From positions 1 through 64,000 of the forward strand of contig NZ_CP047952.1 of assembly GCF_014279875.1 (NCBI RefSeq): a DNA stretch of 64,000 nt. The letters run 5' to 3'. This stretch comes from Synechococcus sp. MEDNS5 (GTDB taxonomy: Bacteria; Cyanobacteriota; Cyanobacteriia; PCC-6307; Cyanobiaceae). Under the pieces are notes generated by a model. The model searched no databases and was not told where the DNA came from. It saw nothing but the letters and a program-made list of their open reading frames with translations. Of the stretch, positions 32,625-45,882 are shown piece by piece. The position numbers and the translations under genes are program-made. Every line of letters begins with the position of its first letter. The stretch's first letter is position 1.

Positions 32625-33743
32625 TCAGGCGTGGGGCTGCAACCGATCAGCTCCATCCACCACCTCGATGCGGTTGATCTGGTCGTCCACGCTGAGTTCC
32701 TCGAGAACATCGAAGCCATTCACCACATAGCCGAAGGCGGCATTGCGTCCATCCACCAGATTCAGTCCGGCAGGGGTGAGCTCCGCTTCGTAAAGAAACA
32801 GGAAGAACTGGGATGAGCCATCATCGAGCGCCTGATCGGAATGGGCCCAGCCAAGGGTGCCGAGGGTGGAAAAAGGCAGGACGGGAGTGGCCTTGTACAA
32901 ACCCACATCCTCAAAGGTCTCGTTGTAGAAGGTGTCCGGCTCGCCTGGAACACGAATTTCCAGCGGTACATGCCGTTCCTGCTTGCTGGTTGGATCCACA
33001 TATCCGATTGCAGGACCCTCAGGATCGCCGCTTTGCAAGATGTAGAAATCCTCGGCTCTGCTGAAGGGAAGGCCGTCGTAGAAGCCCTTGAGGCTGAGAT
33101 CGATGAAGGCGCCGGCCGTCAGAGGTGCGTTGTATCCATCCACAACGGCTGTGAGATCGCCCTGTGTGGTGCTGATCACCACGGTGGCCCGTCCATTGAG
33201 GCGGGGCAGGTCATCGAACTCCGCGGGAATGGGAGGGATCCGGTCATCAATCAGCAGGTATTCGAGATCGCCGATCGTGGTCAGCGTCTGCCGGCGGGTC
33301 TGGATGAATCCTGATTTATCGGTGGCATCCACCCGTTCCTGCATCAGCACCAGGTCGTTTTTGACCGTGTCGAGCAGCTGTTCGGCCTGCTCACGCTCGG
33401 CATCGGGCACGGCGTTGAGAATGTTGTTGCGACGCGTGTTCAGCAGCGCTTCGCTGCGGCTGATGCTGCGTCCGAGGGCACTCCAGCGCTTGGCCCGCAA
33501 ATCGTCGCTCGTGCCTTCCAGTCGGTGCTGCAGTTCACGCAGGTCCTCCTGGTCCATCGGCAGGGAATCCCGCAGGATCGCAGCGGGATCCTGCACGGCA
33601 TTTCCTTGGGGCAGTCCGGCCCAGACTGGTTCGGCCCAGACCAAGCCGACCACCATCAGGAGGCTGAGCAAGCCAGTGCTCAAACGCTGAAAAGCCGACC
33701 GAATCGCCACGGAGAACCCCAGGTGCTGAAAGGACTTTGGCAC
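32625..33743 (-). CDS. Exported cyclophilin-type peptidyl-prolyl isomerase (CYP38/TLP40-like)
   Basis: The 372-residue protein has a signal segment ([17 protein letters not shown], about 25-42) and a helical N-terminal region (about 55-170). A cyclophilin-like barrel follows (about 185-365), with [10 protein letters not shown] and [16 protein letters not shown]. The layout of a helical bundle followed by a cyclophilin matches CYP38/TLP40, a thylakoid-lumen protein needed for photosystem II assembly in plants; the cyanobacterial homologue is inferred to do the same. Isomerase residues are only partly conserved. It starts 32 bases from efp, on the other strand. Confidence 0.87.
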
Positions 33744-33775
33744 AGCCGTATGATCCCCTGAACCGTTCAGCGGGA

Positions 33776-34339
33776 ATGATTTCCAGCAACGACTTTCGCA
33801 CTGGCACCACCATCGAGCTGGACGGTGCCGTCTGGCGTGTGGTCGAGTTCCTGCACGTCAAGCCAGGCAAGGGTTCTGCCTTTGTGCGCACCAAACTCAA
33901 GGCGGTGCAAAGCGGCAACGTGGTGGAGAAAACCTTCCGCGCTGGCGAGATGCTGCCCCAGGCCATTCTTGAGAAAGCCACGCTTCAGCACACCTACATG
34001 GAAGGTGAGGACTATGTCTTCATGGACATGGGCACCTACGAAGAAACCCGCCTGTCTGCGAAGCAGATCGGTGAGAGCCGCAAATACCTCAAGGAAGGGA
34101 TGGAGGTGAATGTCGTCTCCTGGAATGAAAAGCCTCTTGAGGTTGAACTACCCAATTCGGTTGTGCTCGAGATCAAGGAGACCGATCCGGGCGTGAAAGG
34201 CGACACCGCGACCGGTGGCACCAAGCCAGCCATTCTCGAGACCGGTGCTCAGGTGATGGTGCCTCTCTTTCTTTCCATTGGTGAGAAGATCAAGGTTGAC
34301 ACCCGCAACGACACCTACCTGGGTCGGGAGAACAGCTGA
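33776..34339 (+). CDS. efp: Translation elongation factor P
   Basis: EF-P rescues ribosomes stalled at polyproline. The 187-residue product has the three beta-barrel layout, with the modified-residue loop [13 protein letters not shown] carrying a Lys at its tip. ATG 33776 ([10 protein letters not shown]) is the family start; the frame opening at 33737 overlaps the cyclophilin start. It is followed after two bases by accB, a widely conserved pair. Confidence 0.96.
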
Positions 34340-34341
34340 CC

Positions 34342-34821
34342 ATGCATCTCGACCACGATCAGCTGAATCAGCTTCTCGACAAGCTGGCGGAGAGCGACAT
34401 TCAAGAGTTCCGTCTCGAGGGCGATGACTTCCGCCTGGAGGTTCGCCGGAATCTTCCTGTTGCGGCCGCGGCCACTCAGATGGTGCCTGTTGCCGCTCCT
34501 CCTGTGCCAGCGCTGGAGATCAAGACTCAGAGCGAGTCCTCGTCCGCTGCCCCTCCTGCAGCTGCGGGAACCCGCACGGATCTCGTGGATGTCACCGCTC
34601 CGATGGTGGGCACCTTCTACCGGGCTCCTGCACCCGGTGAAGCTGCCTTCGTGGAGATCGGTAACCGCATCTCTGCTGGTCAGACGATCTGCATCCTCGA
34701 AGCGATGAAGCTGATGAACGAGCTGGAGGCCGAGCTGAGCGGCGAAGTGGTGGAAATCCTGGTGGACAACGGCACGCCCGTGGAATTCGGTCAGGTGTTG
34801 ATGCGCGTCAAGCCTGGCTAA
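34342..34821 (+). CDS. accB: Biotin carboxyl carrier protein of acetyl-CoA carboxylase
   Basis: AccB carries carboxybiotin between biotin carboxylase and carboxyltransferase in fatty-acid synthesis. The 159-residue protein has an N-terminal helical segment, an Ala/Pro-rich linker (about 50-80), and a C-terminal biotinyl domain with the biotinylated Lys in EAMKLMNE. accC is not adjacent. The last 14 bases overlap the end of pdxA on the other strand. Confidence 0.96.
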   Translation: MHLDHDQLNQLLDKLAESDIQEFRLEGDDFRLEVRRNLPVAAAATQMVPVAAPPVPALEIKTQSESSSAAPPAAAGTRTDLVDVTAPMVGTFYRAPAPGEAAFVEIGNRISAGQTICILEAMKLMNELEAELSGEVVEILVDNGTPVEFGQVLMRVKPG

Positions 34822-35836
34822 GCGCCCAGGCCGCTTCGATGGCGGCCAGCATGCTGTCGCAGCGCGCGACGCCCTGGCCAGCGATGTCGAATCCGGTTCC
34901 ATGATCGGGTGATGTGCGCAGAAACGAGAGGCCAAGGGTGGTGTTGACCGCCTGGTCAAAGGCAAGCAATTTCACGGGGATCAGTCCCTGATCGTGATAC
35001 AGGGCCAGAATTCCGTCAGGGCCAGCTGTGTTGTTGCGGCTCCATGCCTGCGCTGCGCTGAGCCAGCACGTATCTGGCGGAAGAGGGCCCCTGAGCTGGA
35101 TCGTGGGGTTTGCCTCCACCCATTGACGCAGCAAAGGTGTGAGCCATTGCTCTTCCTCGCTGCCGAGCTGCCCTTTCTCGCCGGCGTGGGGATTGAGACC
35201 GGCCACCAGCAGTTGCGGTGAGGGATTGAAGCGTTGGCAGAACCGGGCCAGGGTCTCCAGCTTGGTGCTCACCAAAGCCGGGGTAAGGGCTTGAGACACC
35301 TGTTGCAGAGGGATGTGGGTGGTGGCCAGAAGGGTGTTCAGTCGCCATCCGGTGCTGGGTGAAACGGCCGTGAACAGCATTGATGCGGACTCTGCTCCGT
35401 CGAGTTCGGCCAATCGCTCGGTCTGCCCGGGATAGGGATGGCCTGCTGCATGCCAGGTGTGCTTTGCGATCGGCGCCGTGACCAGGGCCCGTCCGTGGCC
35501 TCCCTGGACCAGCTCCACGGCTCGACTTAGCCAGCGGAACCCGGCCTCCCCGCTACTGGCCCCCGCATTGCCTGGATCCACTGGGCCGTTGGGGATCGGA
35601 AGGTCTTCAACCTCAAGGTCATCAGGATCCGCCAGGGGAACGCCCTTCAGGTTGTGCAAGAGCTGATGGGTGCGTTTGAGGCTGGCTCTGCAGCCCACCA
35701 GCAACGGTTTCATGCCCCGCGGACAGCGGGGGTCTGCGAGGGCTTTGAGGGTGACTTCCATGCCGATCCCGGCGGGATCCCCTAAAGCGATAACGAGATG
35801 CTGATTAGCGTCTGTGTGTTGATGGAGCGGGATCAT
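34808..35836 (-). CDS. pdxA: 4-hydroxythreonine-4-phosphate dehydrogenase PdxA
   Basis: PdxA acts in the DXP-dependent route to vitamin B6. The 342-residue protein shows LGDPAGIGMEVTLKAL, TAPIAKHTWHAAGHPYPGQTE, and the metal-binding YHDQGLIPVK with FLRTSPDHGTGFDIAG. The start codon ATG at 35836 shares two bases with the divergent start at 35835 (CATG palindrome). A later start would cut into the family core, so the overlap seems real. Confidence 0.94.
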   Translation of the reverse strand: MIPLHQHTDANQHLVIALGDPAGIGMEVTLKALADPRCPRGMKPLLVGCRASLKRTHQLLHNLKGVPLADPDDLEVEDLPIPNGPVDPGNAGASSGEAGFRWLSRAVELVQGGHGRALVTAPIAKHTWHAAGHPYPGQTERLAELDGAESASMLFTAVSPSTGWRLNTLLATTHIPLQQVSQALTPALVSTKLETLARFCQRFNPSPQLLVAGLNPHAGEKGQLGSEEEQWLTPLLRQWVEANPTIQLRGPLPPDTCWLSAAQAWSRNNTAGPDGILALYHDQGLIPVKLLAFDQAVNTTLGLSFLRTSPDHGTGFDIAGQGVARCDSMLAAIEAAWALSQA

Positions 35837-36026
35837 GCTGCGCTGGCTGTTGATCGGGTTGCTGCTCTACGGCCTGGGAACTGCTCTGCGGCAAGGATGG
35901 CTGGAGGTTCAGTGGAGCCAATTTCTCCATGACGCCGGGCTGACATTCATCGATCCCGACCAGCCCCTTGAACTGCATGAACTGCCCATGTTCAAGCCGG
36001 AGACGAGGGAGTCCTCGACTCCCTGA
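35835..36026 (+). CDS. Small membrane protein, unknown function
   Basis: The 63-residue protein starts with a hydrophobic segment (WLLIGLLLYGLGTAL, about 4-18) and continues with an acidic, Pro-containing tail (DPDQPLELHELP). No family is recognised. Its coding status rests on a membrane-segment start and a sensible composition. It begins on the same CATG as pdxA and its end overlaps the epimerase 3' end by 35 bases. Confidence 0.6.
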   Translation: MLRWLLIGLLLYGLGTALRQGWLEVQWSQFLHDAGLTFIDPDQPLELHELPMFKPETRESSTP

Positions 36027-36918
36027 GGGTTTCGATCGCGAGGCATTGCGCCAGTCCGCTGCGGTAGGTCGGATACACCAGCTCGTAACCGAGATCCTGG
36101 CGGAGGCGCTGGTTGCTGACCCGTCGGTTGTCCGCCCAGAACGACCTGGCCATGGCGCTCATGCTGGCCTCCGCTTCGCAGAACGGTTTGGGTTGGGGAA
36201 GCTCGCAGTTCAGTAGGGATGCGGCATAGCGGTGCACTGAAACACTCGCTGCTGGCTCGTCATCGCAGACGTTCACGATCTCTGGATGCTGACCCTGAGC
36301 GGATCGATGCATGAGATGGAGGGAGGCCGCGGCCAAGTCATCCACATGAATGCGACAGAACATCTGCCCAGGCTTGTCCACCGGCTGCAATGTTCCTGCT
36401 TTCAGCGCAGCGAGAGGGGAGCGGCCAGGTCCATAGATTCCCGGCAAACGCATGATCTGGAGAGGAAGTCCGCTGGACAGCCACGCTTGTTCGCACGCCA
36501 GCCGACGCCGGCTTCGGTCTTGGGTGGGTTGCGGAGGGTCGTTCTCGCAGACCCAGGCGCCGTCGGTGTTGCCGTACACCCCTGTGGTCGAGAGATAGCC
36601 GACCCAGCGCAGCGGCCAGTGCTTGATCTGATCGCCGAGCGTTGTCAGTACCGGATCGTTGCCATCGCGATCGGGTGGGATGGTGATGAGCAGATGGGTG
36701 ACGCCCTCGAGCTGGTGAGGATCAGGAACCTTTCCGGTCGCTGAGTCGAAGGCGAGGTGTCCGCTGTACGGCGCGGGTTCACGCCGGGTGCTGATGACGG
36801 GGATCTTTAAGGCAGCAGCGAGGGAAGCGAGGCGGTTGCCACTGAACCCGGCGCCGAGGATGCAGAGCTTGGATCCGGCAGGCAGTGGCTGACAGCGGTT
36901 GACAAGTGATTCAGGCAT
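35992..36918 (-). CDS. NAD-dependent epimerase/dehydratase-like protein
   Basis: The roughly 308-residue protein is an extended SDR: LCILGAGFSGNRLASL is the nucleotide-binding start, VGYLSTTGVYGNTDG supplies the Ser-Thr and Tyr region, and MRLPGIYGPGRSPL follows. The active-site YxxxK is not obvious, since Tyr is followed by GNTDG, so catalytic activity is uncertain. I list ATG 36918 (MPESLVNRCQ); ATG 36942 is also in frame. The substrate is unknown. Confidence 0.8.
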   Translation of the reverse strand: MPESLVNRCQPLPAGSKLCILGAGFSGNRLASLAAALKIPVISTRREPAPYSGHLAFDSATGKVPDPHQLEGVTHLLITIPPDRDGNDPVLTTLGDQIKHWPLRWVGYLSTTGVYGNTDGAWVCENDPPQPTQDRSRRRLACEQAWLSSGLPLQIMRLPGIYGPGRSPLAALKAGTLQPVDKPGQMFCRIHVDDLAAASLHLMHRSAQGQHPEIVNVCDDEPAASVSVHRYAASLLNCELPQPKPFCEAEASMSAMARSFWADNRRVSNQRLRQDLGYELVYPTYRSGLAQCLAIETLRESRTPSSPA

Positions 36919-36929
36919 GAGTACAAACG

Positions 36930-36935
36930 TATTAT
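36930..36935 (+). promoter_or_regulatory. Possible -10 element (TATTAT)
   Basis: TATTAT sits in an AT-rich patch between the epimerase gene and the small plus-strand gene at 36991, with about 55 bases to that start. If it is a promoter, the epimerase start at 36918 is the better choice because the region would then be non-coding. Confidence 0.3.
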
Positions 36936-36990
36936 TCGCCATTCAGTTGTGACCGGTTCTTGTCTTTCTCTGGTGTCATCCCAGAACTCC

Positions 36991-37185
36991 ATGCTGCCGC
37001 GTCGTGAGCCGATCCGCAGGGCTCATGCCGTAGGTCGTCAGGACACTGGCCTGCTGCGTGGTGTGATGGCCGCCGCAGCGGCTGCACTGGTAAGCGGAGC
37101 TTTTCTGCTGGCTCCAGAGCAGCCGGAGCAGCAGGCTTCAATCTGCCAACAGCATCACTCAGTGGATGCCTGCCGGGTTTGGTGA
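36991..37185 (+). CDS. Small protein with one membrane segment, unknown
   Basis: The 64-residue protein has a basic start (LPRREPIRRAHAVGRQ), an Ala-rich hydrophobic segment (about 25-40) and a short tail with two Cys (ICQQHHSVDACRVW). The basic-hydrophobic layout suggests a membrane anchor or signal, and the two Cys might form a disulfide outside the membrane. I chose the internal ATG 36991 over 36949. The stop touches the HNH gene end on the other strand (37186). Confidence 0.55.
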   Translation: MLPRREPIRRAHAVGRQDTGLLRGVMAAAAAALVSGAFLLAPEQPEQQASICQQHHSVDACRVW

Positions 37186-37629
37186 TCAGGCCGCCTGGAA
37201 GGCCCAGTCGCTGTCGTCTTGTGGATTGGTTAAAGGCGAGTCTGCGTTTGTGGCGTTGGCAGTTGTTTGTTGAAGATCAGGTTGGGCCCACTGCAGCAAG
37301 CGCAGTGCCAGGCGCAGATCGCCATCCATCCAGGCTCGGATCGCCATGGCACGGCGCGGATCATAGAAACGCTGACGCCGATACCAATCGAATGCATCAG
37401 CATCTGATTTGTGACCGTTGCAGGATAAACAAGCGGGTACGCAATTTTCAGTAATGCTTAGCCCGCCGCGACTTCTCGGCAATACATGATCGATTGATTC
37501 AGAAGGTTTGCCGCAATAAATACAGCTTTTGCCGGTGTAAGTATGGAGTGATTGACGCCACCTTCGGACACGTAATTTAGGACAGAGATCTTCGAGAAAG
37601 ACTGCATCTCTGTTGTGCATCCGAATCAT
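37186..37629 (-). CDS. HNH endonuclease family protein
   Basis: The 147-residue protein carries a complete HNH motif: CIYC at 36-39, the DH pair at 47-48 (SIDHVLPRSRGG), Asn62, and CLSCNGHK at 67-74. The first half contains the metal-binding Cys pairs of a zinc-stabilised fold. The C-terminal 60 residues are helical with a Gln- and Asp-rich end. It is transcribed away from the SNF2-type helicase, with 183 bases between. HNH domains cut or nick DNA; the target here is unknown. Confidence 0.9.
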   Translation of the reverse strand: MIRMHNRDAVFLEDLCPKLRVRRWRQSLHTYTGKSCIYCGKPSESIDHVLPRSRGGLSITENCVPACLSCNGHKSDADAFDWYRRQRFYDPRRAMAIRAWMDGDLRLALRLLQWAQPDLQQTTANATNADSPLTNPQDDSDWAFQAA

Positions 37630-37812
37630 TCGGTTGCTTGAAGTTTGCCGCGACCGACTCCATCGTCAATGTGTTGAAGACTGCATTTTTGCGATTTCGT
37701 TGTGAGCGCTTACAGGAGGTGTCTGGCCCCTTGTTTCTCTCGCTGGAATCCATAAGATAGTGATTGCTGACTTGGGTTCACGGCAGGATCTCCTCCTGGC
37801 TGCAGTCTTGGG
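37630..37812. other. Divergent intergenic region between HNH and SNF2 genes
   Basis: This 183-base gap must hold promoters for both genes. I see AT-rich patches near 37680-37700 and a CATAAGATAG stretch near 37755. GTTCACGGCAGG and the CAGGA-TCTCC-TCCTG inverted repeat (37784-37798) lie just before the helicase start. None is strong enough to name. Confidence 0.3.
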
Positions 37813-39381
37813 TTGACCCCATCGGGCCTCGTGCGCGCAACGTATCCCTTTGACGCGGTGACGCATGCGCAAATGGGTCGCATTCGTCCTCGTGGGCTGT
37901 GGCGGGGGTCATCCTTGGGCTGGGAATTTCCGCTCGCGGCTGCAGAGACCCTGCTGGAGCGTTTTGGTAAACGCTTTCGTGTGGATGAGGAGCTCCTGCG
38001 CTGGCTGCATTGGCATCGTCATCCCTTACCGCCTTTGCCACACCACCGCGAGTTGATCGCTCATGCTGATCTGAATCAACCGTTGGCAGATGGCCGCCGG
38101 CCTCTTCCCCATCAGCGCTCCGGTGCCCGTTGGCTGCTCGCCCGTCGGGGAGCGCTTCTGACCGACGAGATGGGGCTCGGTAAAACCCTCACGGCCCTGT
38201 TGGCAGCGCGAGCGCTTGTGCGTGTGGTCCCTCTGCGCCTGCTGGTTGTGGCTCCAGTAGGGCTGCATCCCCATTGGCAACGGGAAGCGTCGGCCGTTGA
38301 TCTTGAGGTGTGCTTGCACAGCTGGGCACGCCTGCCGAGCGACCTTCCCGAAGCAGGAACCATCATGGTGGTGGATGAAGCGCACTACGCCCAGACGATG
38401 CAGGCGCAGCGCACCCAGGCTCTGCTGCGGTTAGCCCGCCATCCGCGCTTGCGTGCGATTTGGATGCTGACGGGAACTCCCGTTCGCAACGGCAGACCGA
38501 TTCAGCTTTACCCCCTGCTCGCTGCGATCGACCATCCTCTCGCTCGTGATCAGCGCTCCTTTGAGGAGATGTTTTGTCAGGGCCACTGGAGCGAACGGGG
38601 AGGACAGCGACGTTGGCGCGTGGATGGAGCCAGTCGTCTCGAGGAGTTGCGACGTCTGACCAGGCCACTGGTGCTTCATCGCCGCAAGCAGCAGGTGCTG
38701 GGTCTGCCTCCGAAGCGTCGCTCCTTTCAATCTGTGGCACTGGAGTCCACGCAGGCCCGTGGAATGGACCATCGGCTTGCCTTGGTGGTCGAGGACTATC
38801 GCCGTCGGGTCAGGGCCGGAGTTGTGCGTTCCGATGCCGAATCACTTGCGGTGTTGACGTCATTGCGTTTGATTGCCGCGGAATTCAAGTTGCCGGCGGC
38901 TGAACGGCTCGTGCAACACCTGCGGTCGCAGGGTGAATCCGTTGTGCTGTTCAGCTCATTTGTGGCGCCCCTCATGCTGTTGCAGCAACGTTTGGGTGGG
39001 GAGTTGCTCACCGGTCGGCAGAAACCGGAGGAGCGTCAGATGGCTGTGGATCGCTTTCAGGACGGATCGACGGATCTGCTGCTGGCGACCTACGGAGCTG
39101 GTGGCCTGGGATTCACGCTTCACAGGGCCCGTCAGGTGGTGCTGTTGGAGCGCCCCTGGACTCCTGGCGATGTCGATCAGGCCGAGGATCGCTGCCATCG
39201 GCTGGGAATGGATGGAGAACTCGTCAGCCATTGGCTTCAACTCGGTCCAGCGGACCAACTCGTGGATGGACTGGTGGCCAGCAAAGCCAGTCGTATCGAG
39301 CTGCTGATGGGTGCGCGACGGGTGAGTGTTGAACGTCAGTCGTTGCCGGCAATGGTGGCCCGCAGTTTGCAGGACTGCTGA
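37813..39381 (+). CDS. SNF2-family helicase/translocase
   Basis: The 522-residue protein has all main SNF2 motifs: Walker A DEMGLGKT (about 117), DEAH box in VVDEAHYAQ (about 189), LTGTP (about 219), the V motif ATYGAGGLGFTL (about 425) and motif VI QAEDRCHRLG (about 455). At this length it is a bare motor with a short N-terminal extension, resembling the SMARCAL1/ZRANB3 group more than chromatin remodellers. The start is TTG 37813 or GTG 37831 (VRATYPFDAV). The last 46 bases overlap the next minus-strand gene. Confidence 0.93.
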   Translation: MTPSGLVRATYPFDAVTHAQMGRIRPRGLWRGSSLGWEFPLAAAETLLERFGKRFRVDEELLRWLHWHRHPLPPLPHHRELIAHADLNQPLADGRRPLPHQRSGARWLLARRGALLTDEMGLGKTLTALLAARALVRVVPLRLLVVAPVGLHPHWQREASAVDLEVCLHSWARLPSDLPEAGTIMVVDEAHYAQTMQAQRTQALLRLARHPRLRAIWMLTGTPVRNGRPIQLYPLLAAIDHPLARDQRSFEEMFCQGHWSERGGQRRWRVDGASRLEELRRLTRPLVLHRRKQQVLGLPPKRRSFQSVALESTQARGMDHRLALVVEDYRRRVRAGVVRSDAESLAVLTSLRLIAAEFKLPAAERLVQHLRSQGESVVLFSSFVAPLMLLQQRLGGELLTGRQKPEERQMAVDRFQDGSTDLLLATYGAGGLGFTLHRARQVVLLERPWTPGDVDQAEDRCHRLGMDGELVSHWLQLGPADQLVDGLVASKASRIELLMGARRVSVERQSLPAMVARSLQDC

Positions 39382-39722
39382 CGCACGCTGAGTTCGTGCA
39401 GCAGCATCGGATCGGGCTTTTGTTGACCCTTCTTGAGCAAGCGTGCGGCCTTGGCCACATCGTTGCAGGCCTCTTCAGGCCTCTTCATCAGGTTGAAGAT
39501 CAATGATCGATCCACCAGGGGGGCCGGATTGCTGCGGTGAGCGCGAACCACCAAATTGCAGCGATCCAAGGCGGCATCCAAGCGTTTGAGGTTGAGATTT
39601 TCCAGACACTCGGAAGCTGCCACTTCAGCGGCTTCAGTTGGAGCGGTTTGATTGGATTGCTTCCCGCAGCCCATGCTGCTGATCAGCAACCCACCGAGGA
39701 CAAGGCTGGAAACGAGCCGCAT
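39336..39722 (-). CDS. Putative lipoprotein with a TPR-like region
   Basis: The 128-residue protein has a lipoprotein signal peptide with the lipobox SSMGC (Cys19). The rest (about 36-110) is helical, with the pattern ECLENLNLKRLDAALDRCNLV, and could form one or two TPR-like pairs. Four further Cys residues are present. Its stop lies inside the helicase 3' end. It follows the 39722 gene with a one-base overlap (ATGA-type), so the two are coupled. Confidence 0.72.
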   Translation of the reverse strand: MRLVSSLVLGGLLISSMGCGKQSNQTAPTEAAEVAASECLENLNLKRLDAALDRCNLVVRAHRSNPAPLVDRSLIFNLMKRPEEACNDVAKAARLLKKGQQKPDPMLLHELSVRQQSCKLRATIAGND

Positions 39723-40126
39723 CAGTAGCTGTAACGATCATCAGCATCCCAGTTGGGGATCTCTTCGCTGCCACTGGAGCTGCTGGTTGCTTGGGGGGAA
39801 GCGGATGCACGGCCTGATCGACCGAACAGATCGCCGAGGTATCTGCCGCAATCAGGGAAGTTGCCAGGATCTTCAACCACTGCTTCGGTGATCATCACAG
39901 CCGCATGTTTGGGGGAAGTTTTGAACAGGCCGCTTCCTTGCCTCTTGATCAGCGCGTAGGAGGCTTCCCAGCTCACGTTGTGGTTGTTGCCGTTGCTGCG
40001 CATGTAGCAGTAAACCTGCGCACCTTTACCGGCAGGACCGTTGGCTGCGGCCTGAGCTGGAGCCGCTGACCACAGCATGCCTGCCATTGGCAGCAGCAGG
40101 GCAAGGCGCATGGGGAGGCTGGCCAT
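39722..40126 (-). CDS. Small exported protein, unknown (possibly DUF6554)
   Basis: The 134-residue protein has a signal peptide (LALLLPMAGMLWSAAPAQA, about 8-26). A conserved-looking core follows (VYCYMRSNGNNHNVSWEASY, then ALIKRQGSGLFKTSPKHAAV) with two Cys (about 40 and 92), and a Ser-rich acidic tail ends in Tyr-Ser-Tyr. It may belong to a cyanobacterial family of unknown function (possibly DUF6554); this is from memory and unchecked. It precedes the lipoprotein gene. Confidence 0.7.
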   Translation of the reverse strand: MASLPMRLALLLPMAGMLWSAAPAQAAANGPAGKGAQVYCYMRSNGNNHNVSWEASYALIKRQGSGLFKTSPKHAAVMITEAVVEDPGNFPDCGRYLGDLFGRSGRASASPQATSSSSGSEEIPNWDADDRYSY

Positions 40127-40189
40127 CGGTAGACAGTTATTGCGATCTGCGCCAACGTATCGATTCTTGATTCGCTGTCCAGAGGTGGA

Positions 40190-40708
40190 TCAGGAATTGC
40201 CGAGGCCCAGTGGCGCCAGCAATTTCACCACCAGGGGCAGCACCAGAAGCACCGTGATCAGCCGGACGGCATGCAGTGCTGCCACGGCTGCTCCAACCCC
40301 GTAATCAGCGCCGACCAGACTCATGCCACTGATGCCTCCGGGCGCCGCACCCAGCAAGGTGATCAAGGGGTCCACCCCCAAGAGTCTGCTGGTCCACAGA
40401 CCGATCACAATCCCGGTGAGCACCAGGGTCACCGTGATCAGCACCGCAGGTCTCCAGAGATCCTGCAGTTGATCGAGGGAGGCCCGGGTCAGACCAGTGC
40501 CGATCACAGTGCCGATGCCGATCTGCAGAGCCGTTCGCGTGCCGTTGGGCCACTCCGCCACCTCCACGCGCCCACTCGTGCTTACCAGGGCGGCTCCGAT
40601 CAGAGCTCCGGCGAGCGGCGCCGCAGGAAGCCCTGTTTTGAGTGCCAGCAATCCAAAAATCGTGCCTGCCAGGACGTAGACCAGCAGGGTTAACGGAGAA
40701 GCCAACAC
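40190..40708 (-). CDS. AbrB-type membrane protein (half-size)
   Basis: The 172-residue protein has about five hydrophobic segments and the family pattern LGAAPGGISGMSLVGADYGV. This matches the membrane AbrB/AmoA-like family (PF05145), which is unrelated to the DNA-binding AbrB despite the name. Full-length members have two copies of a 150-residue unit and about 350 residues; this has only one. It could act as a dimer or with a second half elsewhere. Function is unknown, possibly transport. Confidence 0.8.
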   Translation of the reverse strand: MLASPLTLLVYVLAGTIFGLLALKTGLPAAPLAGALIGAALVSTSGRVEVAEWPNGTRTALQIGIGTVIGTGLTRASLDQLQDLWRPAVLITVTLVLTGIVIGLWTSRLLGVDPLITLLGAAPGGISGMSLVGADYGVGAAVAALHAVRLITVLLVLPLVVKLLAPLGLGNS

Positions 40709-40824
40709 ATCAAACTCCCAGCGGGTGGTGGATCAATCTCTGTCCACAGTCGCATCACCTGATGCGCGACTTGAGGGTCTGTCTTGCATGTGTTGTGATC
40801 TGGCCATCACTGTTCTTTTCCCGG

Positions 40825-41094
40825 ATGACCCAGTCCGTGTCTTTCCGTATCACCCGAACGGCAGAGGATGTCGCTCAGACGCTCAACGCCTTGTCTCAAC
40901 GCCTGATCAGATTGGAGCAACGCCTGGAGAGTGTTGAACTGCAGATGAAGCAGCAACGCAGCGAAGCGCAGACGATGCCTGCCGAAGAGCTGCATCGCCT
41001 GGATGGTGTCGATCAGTTGCTGCTGGAGTGTCAGGAGCTGCTTGGTCGTTCAGAACACCAGCTGGATGAACCGGACGTGGATCTGGCCGCATGA
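40825..41094 (+). CDS. Small coiled-coil protein, unknown
   Basis: The 89-residue protein has a long amphipathic helix (about 10-48, ALSQRLIRLEQRLESVELQ) with heptad spacing that predicts a coiled coil, then a second helix with Leu-rich content (VDQLLLECQELLG) and an acidic end. I chose ATG 40825 (MTQSVSFRITRT) because the earlier frame opening at 40642 lies antisense to the AbrB-type gene. Its stop overlaps the ATG at 41091. Confidence 0.65.
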   Translation: MTQSVSFRITRTAEDVAQTLNALSQRLIRLEQRLESVELQMKQQRSEAQTMPAEELHRLDGVDQLLLECQELLGRSEHQLDEPDVDLAA

Positions 41095-41132
41095 GGCTGG
41101 TCAGGGGTGGCAAAATAAAAAGAAAGCCAACC

Positions 41133-41378
41133 ATGGCCCTCACTACTTGCTCCACATCTGGTATCCGCGGTTCCGGAAACGTTCCGCGACCAGGCTGTTC
41201 CTCCTCCGGTCTGCCCATGCCAGGAAACCGTCGCAGCTTCTTTGAAGGTGGTCATCAGCTTGAAAAGCTGGAGTTCGCCCTCGCTGTTGCGATCACCCGC
41301 GGCGACGAAAACCGATCTGAACTTCTTCGGGCTCAGATTGCCGAGCTGGGTGGCAACGTTGAAGAGCCAGGAACCTGA
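41133..41378 (+). CDS. Small conserved-looking protein, unknown
   Basis: The product is 81 residues from ATG 41133 (MALTTCSTSGIRG), or 95 from ATG 41091, which overlaps the previous stop (ATGA). The second half (RRSFFEGGHQLEKLEFALAVAI, then SELLRAQIAELGG) is helical and resembles small proteins I recall from marine picocyanobacteria. No function is known. A two-part hairpin follows 15 bases after the stop. Confidence 0.6.
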   Translation: MALTTCSTSGIRGSGNVPRPGCSSSGLPMPGNRRSFFEGGHQLEKLEFALAVAITRGDENRSELLRAQIAELGGNVEEPGT

Positions 41379-41392
41379 CGCCTAGGCCTGAA

Positions 41393-41434
41393 ATTCATCA
41401 TTGAACGAGTGCGTGTTCAAAGCGCCCGATGAAT
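41393..41434 (+). terminator. Two-part stem-loop after the small gene
   Basis: ATTCATC (41393-41399) pairs perfectly with GATGAAT (41428-41434). Inside it TTGAAC (41401-41406) pairs with GTTCAA (41415-41420) around an 8-base loop. This makes 13 base pairs with an asymmetric internal loop. A short T-rich stretch (CTTTGTTG) follows. It could be a terminator for the small gene at 41133 or part of a small RNA. Confidence 0.55.
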
Positions 41435-41470
41435 CTTTGTTGTGGGCTGTTCTTGGTGATGTTTTGTTGA

Positions 41471-41476
41471 TATACT
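41471..41476 (+). promoter_or_regulatory. -10 element of a small gene
   Basis: TATACT is one mismatch from the -10 consensus TATAAT and lies 26 bases before the 41502 start, in an AT-rich run. No matching -35 is seen at 17 bases (TGTTCT). Expected transcript start is around 41483. Confidence 0.55.
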
Positions 41477-41501
41477 TCTTGCAAGTGGAAAAAGTAAAGA
41501 C

Positions 41502-41744
41502 ATGGTTGCCACACTATTGAAGTCTTCAATTCAGGGAAAGACTTCGAGTCCTTCACGTGACCATTGCCTGAAGCTTGCTGAACAGCATTACTCAGAAGCG
41601 CGTTCCAACGCAGAAGCAGGTCTGGTTTCTGAATCCGCTCAGTTGATTCTCAAGGCTCTTGATCAGGAACGTCGTGCAGGAGGCGTGGGCCCCCAGGTCA
41701 TGCAATTGATCAAACCCCGTGCTTCATGGGGCAACCGTAGTTGA
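41502..41744 (+). CDS. Small soluble protein, unknown
   Basis: The 80-residue protein is hydrophilic and helical (LAEQHYSEARSNAEAGLVSESAQL, a TPR-like helix pair, around 25-55). It has no signal or membrane segment. It has its own promoter-like element and a purine-rich AAAAAGTAAAGAC ahead of the ATG. Its helix pattern suggests a protein-binding role but nothing more can be said. It ends 24 bases before tRNA-Gly, on the opposite strand. Confidence 0.7.
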   Translation: MVATLLKSSIQGKTSSPSRDHCLKLAEQHYSEARSNAEAGLVSESAQLILKALDQERRAGGVGPQVMQLIKPRASWGNRS

Positions 41745-41767
41745 GTCTGATTAGAATCTTTAAAGCA

Positions 41768-41839
41768 AGCGGGTGACCGGACTCGAACCGGCGACGTTCA
41801 GCTTGGGAAGCTGACATTCTACCACTGAATTACACCCGC
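41768..41839 (-). tRNA. tRNA-Gly, anticodon CCC
   Basis: The minus strand folds into a full cloverleaf of 72 bases. The acceptor GCGGGTG pairs with CACCCGC, the D stem is ATTC/GAAT, the anticodon stem is TCAGC/GCTGA with loop TTCCCAA (anticodon CCC, reading GGG), and the T arm has TTCGAGT. No CCA is encoded: the discriminator base is T at 41768. A perfect inverted repeat lies five bases upstream of its 5' end. Confidence 0.97.
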
Positions 41840-41844
41840 ACTCC

Positions 41845-41867
41845 GGGCATGATGGTATCTCATGCCC
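41845..41867 (-). repeat. Perfect 8-bp inverted repeat at the tRNA-Gly 5' flank
   Basis: GGGCATGA (41845-41852) and TCATGCCC (41860-41867) are exact reverse complements separated by seven bases. The hairpin lies between the aminotransferase stop and the tRNA 5' end, with no T run on the minus strand. It could be a processing signal, a terminator of unusual type, or a palindromic operator. Confidence 0.6.
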
Positions 41868-41869
41868 TT

Positions 41870-41895
41870 AATCAACGATCTGCTCAATCGTGATT
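41870..41895 (-). terminator. Stem-loop after the aminotransferase gene
   Basis: AATCA-A-CGAT (41870-41879) pairs with ATCGTGATT (41887-41895), giving nine base pairs with one bulged A and a 7-base loop. It is three bases after the stop codon of the aminotransferase gene. It lacks a T tract, so if it terminates transcription it does so by another means or only in part. Confidence 0.4.
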
Positions 41896-41898
41896 GTT

Positions 41899-43050
41899 TC
41901 AGCTGTTCAGTGCTGAAGATGCTGCACTGAGCCCTGCTCCCATCGTGCCTTTATGCAAACCCAGAGACTGCAGAACTGATTCGATTGCGGCCACAGCTGT
42001 AAGCACATCGCGATCACAGACAAATCCAAGATGGCCGATGCGGAACACATGACCCTTGAGATGGTCCTGACCGCCAGCCAGCAGGATGTCGAATCGCTCC
42101 TTGACGGCTTTGCGAAGCTGCTCAGCATCGATCCCATCGGGTGCCACAGCTGTGATTGCAGGGCTTCCGTAGCCTTCAGCCGCGAAGAGCGGTAGGCCGA
42201 TGGCTTTCATCGCTGCAGTCGCTGCGGCCCGATGGCGTGCGTGCCGGGCAAAGATCGCTTCCAGTCCCTCCGCCTGCATCATCTCCAGAGCCGCATCCAG
42301 GGCGAAATAGAGATTCACTGCTGGCGTGAACGGGTTGCTGTTCTTGGCCGCCGTTTTCCGATAGGGACCGAGATCCAGATAGAACTTGGGCAAGTCGGAC
42401 CGTTCGTAGGCGGCCCAGGCCCGATCGCTCATGGCCACGAAGCTTAGGCCCGGGGGCATCATGTACCCCTTCTGGGAGCCTGAGGCCACCACGTCCAAGC
42501 CCCAGGCATCCATGGGAACGTTGGTGGCGCCAAGGCTCGTGACGCAGTCGGCGATGGTGAGCGCCTCACCATGAGCCTTCACATGGCTGCTGATGGTCTG
42601 CAGGTCGTTGATCACTCCGGTGGAGGTTTCGGAGTGCGTGAGGATCACCGCCTTGATGGCTTTGTCGGTATCGGCCTCGAGCGCTTTGCGGAATGCGTCG
42701 GGGTCGAGAGGCTGTCCCCAATCGGCCTTGATCACGTCCACCTCGAGTCCGTAGGCCCGCGCCACCTTCACCCAGCGTTCACCGAACTTGCCGTTGTCTC
42801 CGCAGAGCACACGATCGCCGCGGCTCAGGGTGTTGATGATGCCGGCTTCCATGGCTGCCGTCCCGCTTCCGGTGATCACCAGCACGTCGCTGCTGGTCTG
42901 ATGCAGCCAGCGCAATTGGGCATTGGTGCGCTCCACCACGGCCTGGAATTCCCCGCTGCGGTGACCGATCGGGTGTCGTCCCATGGCCTTGAGCACCGTT
43001 TCGGGCACCGGGGTAGGCCCGGGAATCATCAGGGTCAGCTTGTCCTGCAC
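41899..43050 (-). CDS. Alanine-glyoxylate / serine-pyruvate class aminotransferase
   Basis: The 383-residue PLP enzyme belongs to class V. It has the start MIPGPTPVPE, the glycine-rich VITGSGTAAMEAG and the Schiff-base Lys in GSQKGYMMPPG near residue 193. In cyanobacteria this family is sometimes labelled soluble hydrogenase small subunit, which is a misnomer. A role in photorespiratory glyoxylate-to-glycine conversion is likely, as it is for plant AGT. The start at 43050 is a GTG. Confidence 0.93.
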   Translation of the reverse strand: MQDKLTLMIPGPTPVPETVLKAMGRHPIGHRSGEFQAVVERTNAQLRWLHQTSSDVLVITGSGTAAMEAGIINTLSRGDRVLCGDNGKFGERWVKVARAYGLEVDVIKADWGQPLDPDAFRKALEADTDKAIKAVILTHSETSTGVINDLQTISSHVKAHGEALTIADCVTSLGATNVPMDAWGLDVVASGSQKGYMMPPGLSFVAMSDRAWAAYERSDLPKFYLDLGPYRKTAAKNSNPFTPAVNLYFALDAALEMMQAEGLEAIFARHARHRAAATAAMKAIGLPLFAAEGYGSPAITAVAPDGIDAEQLRKAVKERFDILLAGGQDHLKGHVFRIGHLGFVCDRDVLTAVAAIESVLQSLGLHKGTMGAGLSAASSALNS

Positions 43051-43151
43051 GGCCTCTGGAGTGCCAATCCTCCATCCTAAAAAACAACCCGCTGCCCTTC
43101 TCTGTTATCGCTGCCCCTGTTCTTGATTCCGGATCCGGGCTCACCCTGCCG

Positions 43152-44315
43152 GTGTGGGTGGCAGCGGCAGCTTGCGCTGCCACCCAGGTGTTGCTGGGAG
43201 ATCCAGCTCCTGCTCGCGTCAGCTTGCAGATTCCTGGGGAGTCCGAGCCCCGCAGCGTGCCGGTCCAGACCGCGAGTTGCATTCGCGATGGTGCCCAGGC
43301 TCTGGCCATCAGTGTTTGTGACCCTGGTCCTGGCCTCGATCTCACCCGTGGTCTTGAAATCTGGGTGCATGCTTGCTGGGGCCCTGCTGATCAAGGCTGG
43401 CTGACGCTGAAGGCCGGAGCGGGGGTTGGTCGTCTCGAAACCGACGGCTCCCTGTGCATTTCAGGGTTCGCCCGGGATCTGCTGGAGTGCAATCTCCGGA
43501 ACCTTGTGCCCAGCGGCCAGTGTTTGGAGCTTGAGGTGGTGCTGCCTAGGGGACGAGCGTTGGCGCAACGCACGAGCAACGCCGCCTTCGGGGTGGTGGA
43601 AGGCCTGGCGCTCATCGGCACGCAAGCGGAGGTGCAAGCCAGTGCGTCGCCGGATCAGCTTCAGAGCGCTCTCGTGCGTCTGCGCACGCTGGTGGAGGCG
43701 TCTGATTTCGAGGGGCGGCTGACGCTGGTGATCGGCGAGAACGGTCTTGATCTGGCTCGATCTCTTCACCTCTCGGCCCATCAGCCTCAGCTGAAGGCCG
43801 GCAACTGGGTAGGCCCGCTGTTGGTGGCTGCCGCCGAAGCGGGGGTGCAGGAGCTTCTGCTCTTCGGTTACCACGGGAAACTGGTGAAGCTGGCCGGCGG
43901 CATCTTCCACACCCATCACCATCTGGCGGATGGGCGTCTGGAGGTGCTGGTGGCGCAAGGGGTGAAGCAGGGCCTGCCCGGTGATCGCCTGCGCGGACTG
44001 CTGGCTGCAGCGTCCTTGGAGGAGGCGTTCCGCTGGCTTGCGGATCAGGATCGTGATCAGGCTGCGGCGTTGTGGCAGTCCGTGGCCGCGGCAGTGGAAG
44101 AGCGAGGCCTGGCCTACCTCACGCGCTATGGATGCAGCGGCATGGGCGTGGGTGCCGCTTTGTTCAATCGTCAACGCCAGTTGCGCTGGGCAGGACCTTG
44201 CGGGCAGGAGATGCTCAAGCGCTGTGGGGTCCTTCTCTACGCTGAGGGATCGGCCGCCGATTCAGCGGTCACCCGTTCCACGGCTCACGGGCGAGATGTC
44301 ACAGGCTCCGAATGA
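43152..44315 (+). CDS. cbiD: Cobalt-precorrin-5B C1-methyltransferase CbiD
   Basis: CbiD methylates C1 of the corrin ring in anaerobic-type cobalamin synthesis. The protein contains the family patterns [10 protein letters not shown] and the C-terminal [12 protein letters not shown] region. The start is a problem: the family N-terminal motif [12 protein letters not shown] begins 15 bases before the first canonical start codon (GTG 43152). In-frame codons back to 43077 contain no ATG, GTG or TTG. An unusual start, possibly ATC at 43107 or CTG at 43092, is likely. Its last 20 bases overlap guaA. Confidence 0.88.
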
Positions 44316-45882
44316 AGGTCAGCGTCAGCCGGCCCTTGTCATTCTTGATTTCGGCTCTCAGTACTCGGAACTGATCGCCCGGCGGGTCCGCGAGACCGAG
44401 GTGTTCTCCGTGGTGCTGGGTTACAGCACCTCGGCGGAGGAACTTCGCCGGATGGCTCCGAAGGGAATCATTCTCAGCGGTGGACCCAGCTCCGTTTACG
44501 CGGAGCACGCACCCCTGTGCGATCCGGAGATCTGGAACCTGGGCATTCCCGTTCTGGGGGTTTGCTACGGCATGCAGCTGATGGTGCAGCAGCTGGGAGG
44601 TCGTGTGGTGGCGGCCACCGGCAAAGCCGAATACGGCAAGGCACCGCTCGAGGTGGATGACCCCACCGACTTGCTCACGAATGTGGACAACGGATCCACG
44701 ATGTGGATGAGCCATGGGGACTCGGTGGAAGCCCTGCCGGAAGGGTTCGTGCGTTTGGCTCACACCGCCAACACGACCGAGGCCGCTGTGGCCAATCACG
44801 AGCGCAGGCTCTACGGCGTGCAGTTCCACCCCGAGGTGGTGCATTCCACCTGCGGGATGGCGATGATTCGCAATTTCGTGTACCACATCTGCGGTTGCGA
44901 GCCCGATTGGACCACGGCGGCGTTCATCGAGGAAGCCGTGAGACAGGTGCGCTCACAGGTCGGTGACAAGCGGGTGTTGCTGGCCCTTTCCGGGGGTGTT
45001 GATTCCTCCACCCTCGCCTTTCTGCTGAAGAAGGCCATCGGTGATCAGCTCACCTGCATGTTCATCGACCAGGGATTCATGCGGAAGGGGGAGCCGGAAT
45101 TCCTCATGGATTTCTTTGATCGCAAGTTCAACATCCACGTTGAATACATCAATGCCCGCCAGCGTTTTCTCGAAAAACTCAAAGACATCACCGATCCGGA
45201 GCAGAAGCGCAAAATCATCGGAACGGAGTTCATCCGCGTGTTTGAAGAGGAGAGTCGCCGCCTGGGCCCCTTCGATTACCTGGCCCAGGGCACCCTCTAT
45301 CCCGATGTGATCGAGAGCGCCGGCACCGACGTTGACCCCAAAACCGGTGAGCGGGTGGCGGTGAAGATCAAGAGCCACCACAACGTGGGTGGTTTGCCGA
45401 AGGATCTCCAGTTCAAGCTGGTGGAGCCCTTGCGCAAATTGTTCAAAGACGAAGTGCGCAAGGTGGGGCGTTCGCTCGGCTTGCCGGAGGAGATCGTGCG
45501 GCGTCATCCCTTCCCAGGGCCTGGTCTGGCCATCCGCATCCTCGGCGAAGTGACGTCCGAGAAACTCGATTGCCTGCGCGACGCGGATCTGATTGTTCGC
45601 GAAGAGGTGAAAGAGGCGGGGCTCTATCACGAGATCTGGCAGGCGTTCGCTGTGCTTCTGCCCGTGCGCTCCGTCGGTGTGATGGGCGACAAACGCACCT
45701 ATGCCTGGCCGATCGTGCTCCGCTGCGTGTCCAGCGAGGACGGCATGACGGCCGACTGGTCGCGTCTGCCTTACGACCTGATGGAGACCATCTCCAACCG
45801 CATCGTGAATGAGGTGAAGGGCGTGAATCGGGTGGTTCTTGACATCACCAGCAAGCCACCGGGGACGATTGAGTGGGAATAA
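44296..45882 (+). CDS. guaA: GMP synthase (glutamine-hydrolysing)
   Basis: GuaA aminates XMP to GMP. The 528-residue protein has the class I amidotransferase domain (Cys near 90 in GVCYGMQ, HPEV), the ATP-pyrophosphatase loop LSGGVDSS, and the dimerisation domain ending in [13 protein letters not shown] 44296 (MSQAPNEG) is inside the cbiD end; the frame is open much further upstream, but that part is antisense-like shadow. It provides a second purine step beside purL-purF. Confidence 0.97.

What the first reader, a model, noticed from the sequence alone, without database searches (positions are those of the whole stretch)
37186..39381. Divergent HNH nuclease and SNF2 motor: a possible split ZRANB3-like pair
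The HNH endonuclease and the SNF2-type helicase are next to each other and share a 183-base promoter region. In eukaryotes ZRANB3 joins an SNF2 motor and an HNH nuclease in one protein for replication-fork remodelling. Here the two activities are on adjacent divergent genes. No restriction-modification or defence gene is adjacent, which suggests fork repair or DNA maintenance rather than a known immune system. This is the best candidate for an undescribed system in the window.
Basis: partly seen in the sequence, partly recalled or inferred. Interest (0 to 1): 0.62.

Follow-up and report, generated by a model that had tools for sequence, protein, structure and literature searches.

The report
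Conserved neighbours, not a ZRANB3 pair
In marine picocyanobacteria a small DNA-cutting enzyme and a DNA motor that resembles the human fork-repair protein SMARCAL1 always sit side by side, but so do all the ordinary genes around them, and many Prochlorococcus keep the cutter after losing the motor, so nothing here shows that the two work as a pair.

Summary
The genes are real: a 147-aa HNH protein (37186-37629, -) and a 522-aa SNF2 motor (37813-39381, +), divergent, 183 bp apart. But the whole ~17-kb block of housekeeping genes is collinear in all 40 genomes checked, so adjacency carries little information about this pair. Prochlorococcus-type genomes deleted the motor cleanly and kept HNH, together with HNH's own promoter. 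I found no fused HNH in the relatives examined, and a neighbouring HNH beside 0 of 55 bacterial and 1 of 80 viral relatives of the motor. The motor is better described as a minimal HARP-SNF2 protein, the architecture of SMARCAL1 rather than ZRANB3: its N-terminal ~55 residues match the HARP domain through intermediates. The HNH protein resembles free-standing cyanophage HNH nucleases, with catalytic and zinc residues intact in 89 orthologues. Most likely these are two independent genes: a bacterial SMARCAL1-like DNA-rewinding/fork-remodelling motor and a domesticated phage-type HNH nuclease, kept adjacent by conserved gene order. A shared origin or weak partnership is not excluded. New members of known kinds; low to moderate interest.

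The parts
37186..37629 (-). HNH protein, 147 aa; zinc cysteines C36 C39 C67 C70; D47-H48, N62, N71; family motif WYRxQxFYDPRR (residues 82-93)
   Evidence: Pfam HNH; residues invariant in 89 aligned rows; 38-43% identical over ~92-95 aa to free-standing cyanophage HNH nucleases
37813..39381 (+). SNF2-type motor, 522 aa; start codon uncertain
   Evidence: Pfam SNF2-rel_dom and Helicase_C; AlphaFold2 pLDDT 88, pTM 0.85; SNF2 cores in PDB at Z up to 28.9
37825..37983 (+). HARP-like N-terminal domain of the SNF2 protein (residues ~5-57)
   Evidence: Profile A3: best of 177,635 PDB sequences is the SMARCAL1 HARP domain 4o66 (E 0.012); 7 of 19 members match Pfam HARP, best E 2.3e-5, the window protein itself does not
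37652..37680 (-). Promoter-like element of HNH: TTGACG - 17 nt - AAACTT
   Evidence: TTGAC 40 or 42 bases before the aligned HNH start in 37 of 41 loci, including all 13 SNF2-less ones; not flagged by the generic sigma-70 scan
37724..37758 (+). Probable promoter-like element of SNF2: CTTGTT ... TAAGAT
   Evidence: Partly conserved columns in the intergenic alignment; inference
33737..45882 (.). Surrounding housekeeping block efp-accB-pdxA-epimerase-HNH-SNF2-DUF6554-abrB-tRNA-spt-cbiD-guaA, collinear across the family
   Evidence: Gene order the same in 40/40 loci

Best explanation
Two independently acting genes that happen to be neighbours in a frozen block of gene order. The SNF2 gene encodes a minimal bacterial HARP-SNF2 motor. 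Inferred mechanism: the HARP-like domain recognises branched or forked DNA, and the ATP-driven SNF2 core rewinds single-stranded regions and migrates or regresses fork junctions, as SMARCAL1 does; it is dispensable, since Prochlorococcus-type genomes lost it. The HNH gene encodes a phage-type, zinc-bound HNH nuclease fixed in the family, expressed from its own promoter and kept under strong constraint even in streamlined genomes; its likely role is nicking or cutting DNA in repair or turnover, its substrate unknown. Shown: sequences, motifs, gene order, losses, HNH promoter conservation. Inferred: enzymatic activities, fork role, independence.
For: Block collinear in 40/40 loci. SNF2 deleted alone in Prochlorococcus-type genomes (HNH-to-DUF6554 gap 117-336 bp instead of ~2 kb), HNH still 66-84% identical. 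HNH promoter-like element kept in all 13 SNF2-less loci. HNH among the better-conserved proteins of the block: median 79% against 62% for SNF2. HNH catalytic and zinc residues invariant. Cyanophage HNH relatives align through the HNH core and the WYRxQxFY region. HARP-like N-terminus before an SNF2 core. No profile-detectable HNH fused or adjacent in 55 bacterial relatives of SNF2, 1 adjacent in 80 viral ones.
Against: No complete genome has SNF2 without HNH, which would fit SNF2 needing HNH. One genome (G025) lacks exactly this pair (plus the small ORF tf78 beside it) while lp393 and the flanks remain. Both genes are restricted to Cyanobiaceae within the phylum sample, so they may have arrived together. 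The window protein itself does not score on Pfam HARP, and a structure search with the isolated domain found nothing significant.
Confidence: 0.72

Rival explanations
1. A split ZRANB3-like module: the SNF2 motor remodels or rewinds stalled forks and the HNH protein incises the remodelled DNA; the two are co-expressed from the divergent region, and Prochlorococcus keeps HNH for a second role.
For: 104/104 divergent adjacency; no SNF2-only complete genome; joint absence in G025 with flanks intact; both genes family-restricted; HARP-like domain on the motor.
Against: Adjacency equals the background of the block; HNH persists without SNF2; separate promoter-like elements; no recurrent linkage elsewhere; domain order unlike ZRANB3.
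Confidence: 0.13
2. The two genes entered the ancestor of most Cyanobiaceae together, for instance as a phage-derived cassette, and now function separately.
For: Neither has an orthologue in the other cyanobacterial families sampled; lineages lacking both (g9, g49) branch near the outgroup in the GuaA tree; phage relatives exist for both HNH and SNF2.
Against: No viral or bacterial contig examined carries this pair; the single-gene tree does not settle whether those lineages never had the genes or lost them.
Confidence: 0.12
3. An undescribed defence system made of HNH plus SNF2.
For: SNF2 and HNH domains are common in defence proteins (weak domain-level PADLOC hits).
Against: Fixed position among housekeeping genes in every locus read, consistent with vertical inheritance; no defence neighbours; defence genes are usually mobile and patchy.
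Confidence: 0.03

Closest known systems
SMARCAL1/HARP annealing helicase
   Same: HARP-like domain directly N-terminal to an SNF2 core; HARP2 to the end of the SNF2 domain is the minimal annealing-helicase unit (PMC4035279)
   Different: The window protein has one divergent HARP-like domain below Pfam detection and a shortened stretch between the WxREx and DEAH motifs; activity untested
ZRANB3/AH2
   Same: SNF2 motor; an HNH protein encoded next door
   Different: Two separate genes; HARP-like domain before rather than after the motor; no HNH on the motor; recombinant AH2 showed no nuclease activity in the first report (PMC3409536), so even ZRANB3 is a weak model for a cutting partner
Bacterial and viral HARP-SNF2 proteins (phrog_62-type DNA helicases)
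   Same: Same motor, and in many the same HARP-like N-terminus
   Different: About 25-40% identity; many are larger proteins; no HNH neighbour as a rule
Free-standing cyanophage HNH endonucleases (S-EIVl, S-CRES3)
   Same: HNH core plus WY(R/K)xQxF(Y/F) region, 38-43% identity
   Different: Here chromosomal and at a fixed locus across the family
HNH endonuclease of PDB 4h9d
   Same: Small HNH protein, 31.5 bits
   Different: Similarity only across the HNH core

Membership tests
SNF2 (SWI2/SNF2) motor | SNF2 N-terminal and helicase C-terminal lobes with Walker A and DExH motifs | tested here: met
   Pfam over cut-off; D118, G121-T125 (GLGKT), D188-E189 and Q456-A457-E458-D459-R460 invariant; PDB SNF2 cores Z up to 28.9
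SMARCAL1-like annealing helicase | HARP domain N-terminal to the motor | tested here: inconclusive
   Supported through intermediates; not met at Pfam cut-off by the window protein; isolated-domain fold search found no significant match
SMARCAL1-like annealing helicase | ATP-dependent annealing and fork regression | not testable with these tools
   needs biochemistry
ZRANB3 | HNH domain in the same polypeptide, C-terminal to the motor | tested here: not met
   522-aa protein ends soon after the helicase C lobe; only SNF2/helicase families found
ZRANB3 | Substrate-recognition (HARP-like) domain after the motor | tested here: not met
   HARP-like domain is residues ~5-57, before the motor; only about 20-50 residues follow the motor
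ZRANB3 | PCNA-binding (PIP/APIM) motifs and NZF zinc finger | not tested
   no zinc finger among the Pfam hits; no dedicated motif scan run
HNH endonuclease superfamily | Intact active site (DH ... N ... N) with zinc cysteines | tested here: met
Functional two-gene system | Adjacency more conserved than that of unrelated neighbouring genes | tested here: not met
   all detected neighbours equally collinear in 40/40 loci
Functional two-gene system | Partners gained and lost together | tested here: inconclusive
   SNF2 lost alone in Prochlorococcus-type genomes; both absent together in G025, g9 and g49; no SNF2-only complete genome
Known anti-phage defence systems | Full-length match to a defence family and a defence neighbourhood | tested here: not met
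   only partial domain-level hits, far below NCBIfam cut-offs

The most novel reading that the evidence does not exclude
A Cyanobiaceae-specific two-gene fork-repair module: a HARP-SNF2 remodeller that works only with a dedicated HNH nuclease, the nuclease having gained a second role that keeps it in Prochlorococcus after loss of the motor.
Probability: 0.12. Interest if true: 0.6.

Novelty: new member of a known kind. Interest (0 to 1): 0.27.

Why it matters
It shows that perfect adjacency across more than a hundred genomes can be uninformative when the surrounding block is frozen. It also points to a compact, single-domain bacterial relative of SMARCAL1 in an abundant marine group, lost in Prochlorococcus-type genomes, and to a constrained HNH nuclease of unknown role that those genomes keep.

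Tried and rejected
Defence system: only partial PADLOC/NCBIfam hits. SOS control: no GTACNNNNGTWC LexA-like site in the window. Gene fusion as a link: none found in the distant bacterial relatives or viral relatives. Literature on expression: the HNH gene reported as UV-induced in Prochlorococcus (PMM1528, PMC2921402) is, judging by chromosome position, probably the other, widespread HNH paralogue (like G095:C1:1455724), not this one; the marine Synechococcus DNA-damage paper (PMC3744912) does not mention HNH or SNF2 in its main text. Isolated HARP-like domain against PDB by structure: no significant match and 4o66 not listed; inconclusive. The clade-specific SS120 SNF2 gene in PMC6102989 (46.6-49.8 kb) fits by coordinates the long ~1,070-aa paralogue (G010:C1:46672). 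A genome-wide tree to place the gain of the pair was not built; only GuaA.

Full report
OBSERVATION. The window is the first 64 kb of a closed 2.44-Mb genome whose closest named relative among SNF2 hits is Synechococcus WH7803 (95% identical SNF2 protein). HNH (37186-37629, -, 147 aa) and SNF2 (37813-39381, +, 522 aa) are real by Pfam, divergent and 183 bp apart. The SNF2 start is uncertain: the TTG used here is CTG or CTT in several relatives. Neighbours are housekeeping genes, not defence genes.

ADJACENCY AND ITS CONTROL. Across 151 Cyanobiaceae genomes, 105 have strong matches to both genes; in all 104 where they share a contig they are divergent with a 94-304 bp gap. But I mapped 21 window genes from 28.9 to 45.9 kb onto 40 loci of 18 kb: every detected gene lies in the same order in all 40. 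efp-accB-pdxA and the other neighbours are as tightly linked as HNH-SNF2. Adjacency therefore does not single out this pair.

LOSSES. Twenty-four genomes have HNH but no SNF2; 16 of them are at least 90% complete by the tables. In the 13 read here SNF2 is cleanly missing between HNH and DUF6554 (117-336 bp instead of ~2 kb), while HNH stays 66-84% identical. No complete genome has SNF2 without HNH; the one SNF2-only case (G120) is a contig-edge fragment. Eight genomes at least 90% complete lack both: G025, where the rest of the block is intact, G049, and six of one genus (g9), where neighbouring genes are missing or moved as well. In a GuaA tree G025 sits inside a clade that has both genes; g49 and g9 lie near the outgroup, so absence there could be ancestral. 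These are few independent events and do not decide dependency.

PROMOTERS. The intergenic alignment shows one strongly conserved element directed at HNH: TTGAC, then (17 nt after the hexamer) an AAACTT-like box, at a fixed distance. It is kept in all 13 SNF2-less loci, so it belongs to HNH alone. A second, weaker element (CTTGT ... TAAnnT) precedes SNF2. The generic promoter scan flagged neither, and no LexA-like site was found.

WHAT THE SNF2 PROTEIN IS. It has orthologues only in Cyanobiaceae within the phylum sample, with 34-38% relatives in other classes. AlphaFold2 gives pLDDT 88 and pTM 0.85, and its core matches chromatin remodellers and CSB. Its first ~57 residues form a separate small domain whose pattern (PFD ... 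RW ... W.FP) recurs in bacterial and viral relatives. Those intermediates match Pfam HARP (7 of 19, best E 2.3e-5). The profile's best match in the PDB is the SMARCAL1 HARP domain, E 0.11 with the narrow profile and 0.012 with the wider one. The window protein alone does not score on HARP and the isolated-domain structure search was empty, so I call it HARP-like. One HARP domain directly before an SNF2 core is the minimal annealing-helicase unit reported for SMARCAL1 (PMC4035279). ZRANB3 instead carries its HARP-like region after the motor (residues 712-820) and its HNH at the C-terminus, and the first report found no nuclease activity (PMC3409536). The better comparison is therefore SMARCAL1.

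WHAT THE HNH PROTEIN IS. All four zinc cysteines and the D-H/N/N catalytic positions are invariant in 89 aligned rows. It is one of the better-conserved proteins of the block (median 79% identity over the matched part). Its relatives outside the family include free-standing HNH nucleases of cyanophages (261 phage records matched), which align through the HNH core and the downstream WYRxQxFY region. I infer a phage-type HNH nuclease domesticated early in the family. A second, diverged copy exists in five genomes of one SNF2-less genus (g18).

LINKAGE ELSEWHERE. Of 55 distant bacterial SNF2 loci with up to 3 kb of flank, none encodes a detectable HNH of this profile; of 80 viral loci, one does (L284). 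I searched with a profile of this HNH family, so very different HNH types could be missed, and several loci are cut by contig ends.

VERDICT. The most likely reading is two independent genes; a partnership keeps about 13% from me.

Noticed in passing
G000:C1:443090-443218 (locus L001): A second HNH gene in the same genome, of the type with weak matches throughout Cyanobacteriia; probably the paralogue behind the UV-induced PMM1528 of Prochlorococcus.
   Followed up: partly
G000:C1:2278619-2279626: A second, long SNF2 protein (~1,137-aa open frame), the widespread cyanobacterial type, 31% identical to the window's SNF2.
   Followed up: no
G017, G067, G095, G117, G136: These SNF2-less genomes of one genus carry a second, ~60% identical copy of the HNH gene at another locus (one copy with a stop codon inside the matched stretch).
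   Followed up: no
L159 and L162 (genomes G049, G063): Lineages g49 and g9 break the otherwise frozen 17-kb block; in G063 pdxA has moved and DUF6554, lp393 and the HNH/SNF2 pair are missing.
   Followed up: partly
window 39336-39722 (-): A small fast-evolving protein (lp393, median 36% identity) whose reading frame overlaps the end of the SNF2 gene; undetected in all SNF2-less Prochlorococcus-type loci read, but kept in G025, which lacks SNF2.
   Followed up: partly
L284, 5749-5934: One viral contig encodes an HNH protein just downstream of a HARP-SNF2-type helicase.
   Followed up: no
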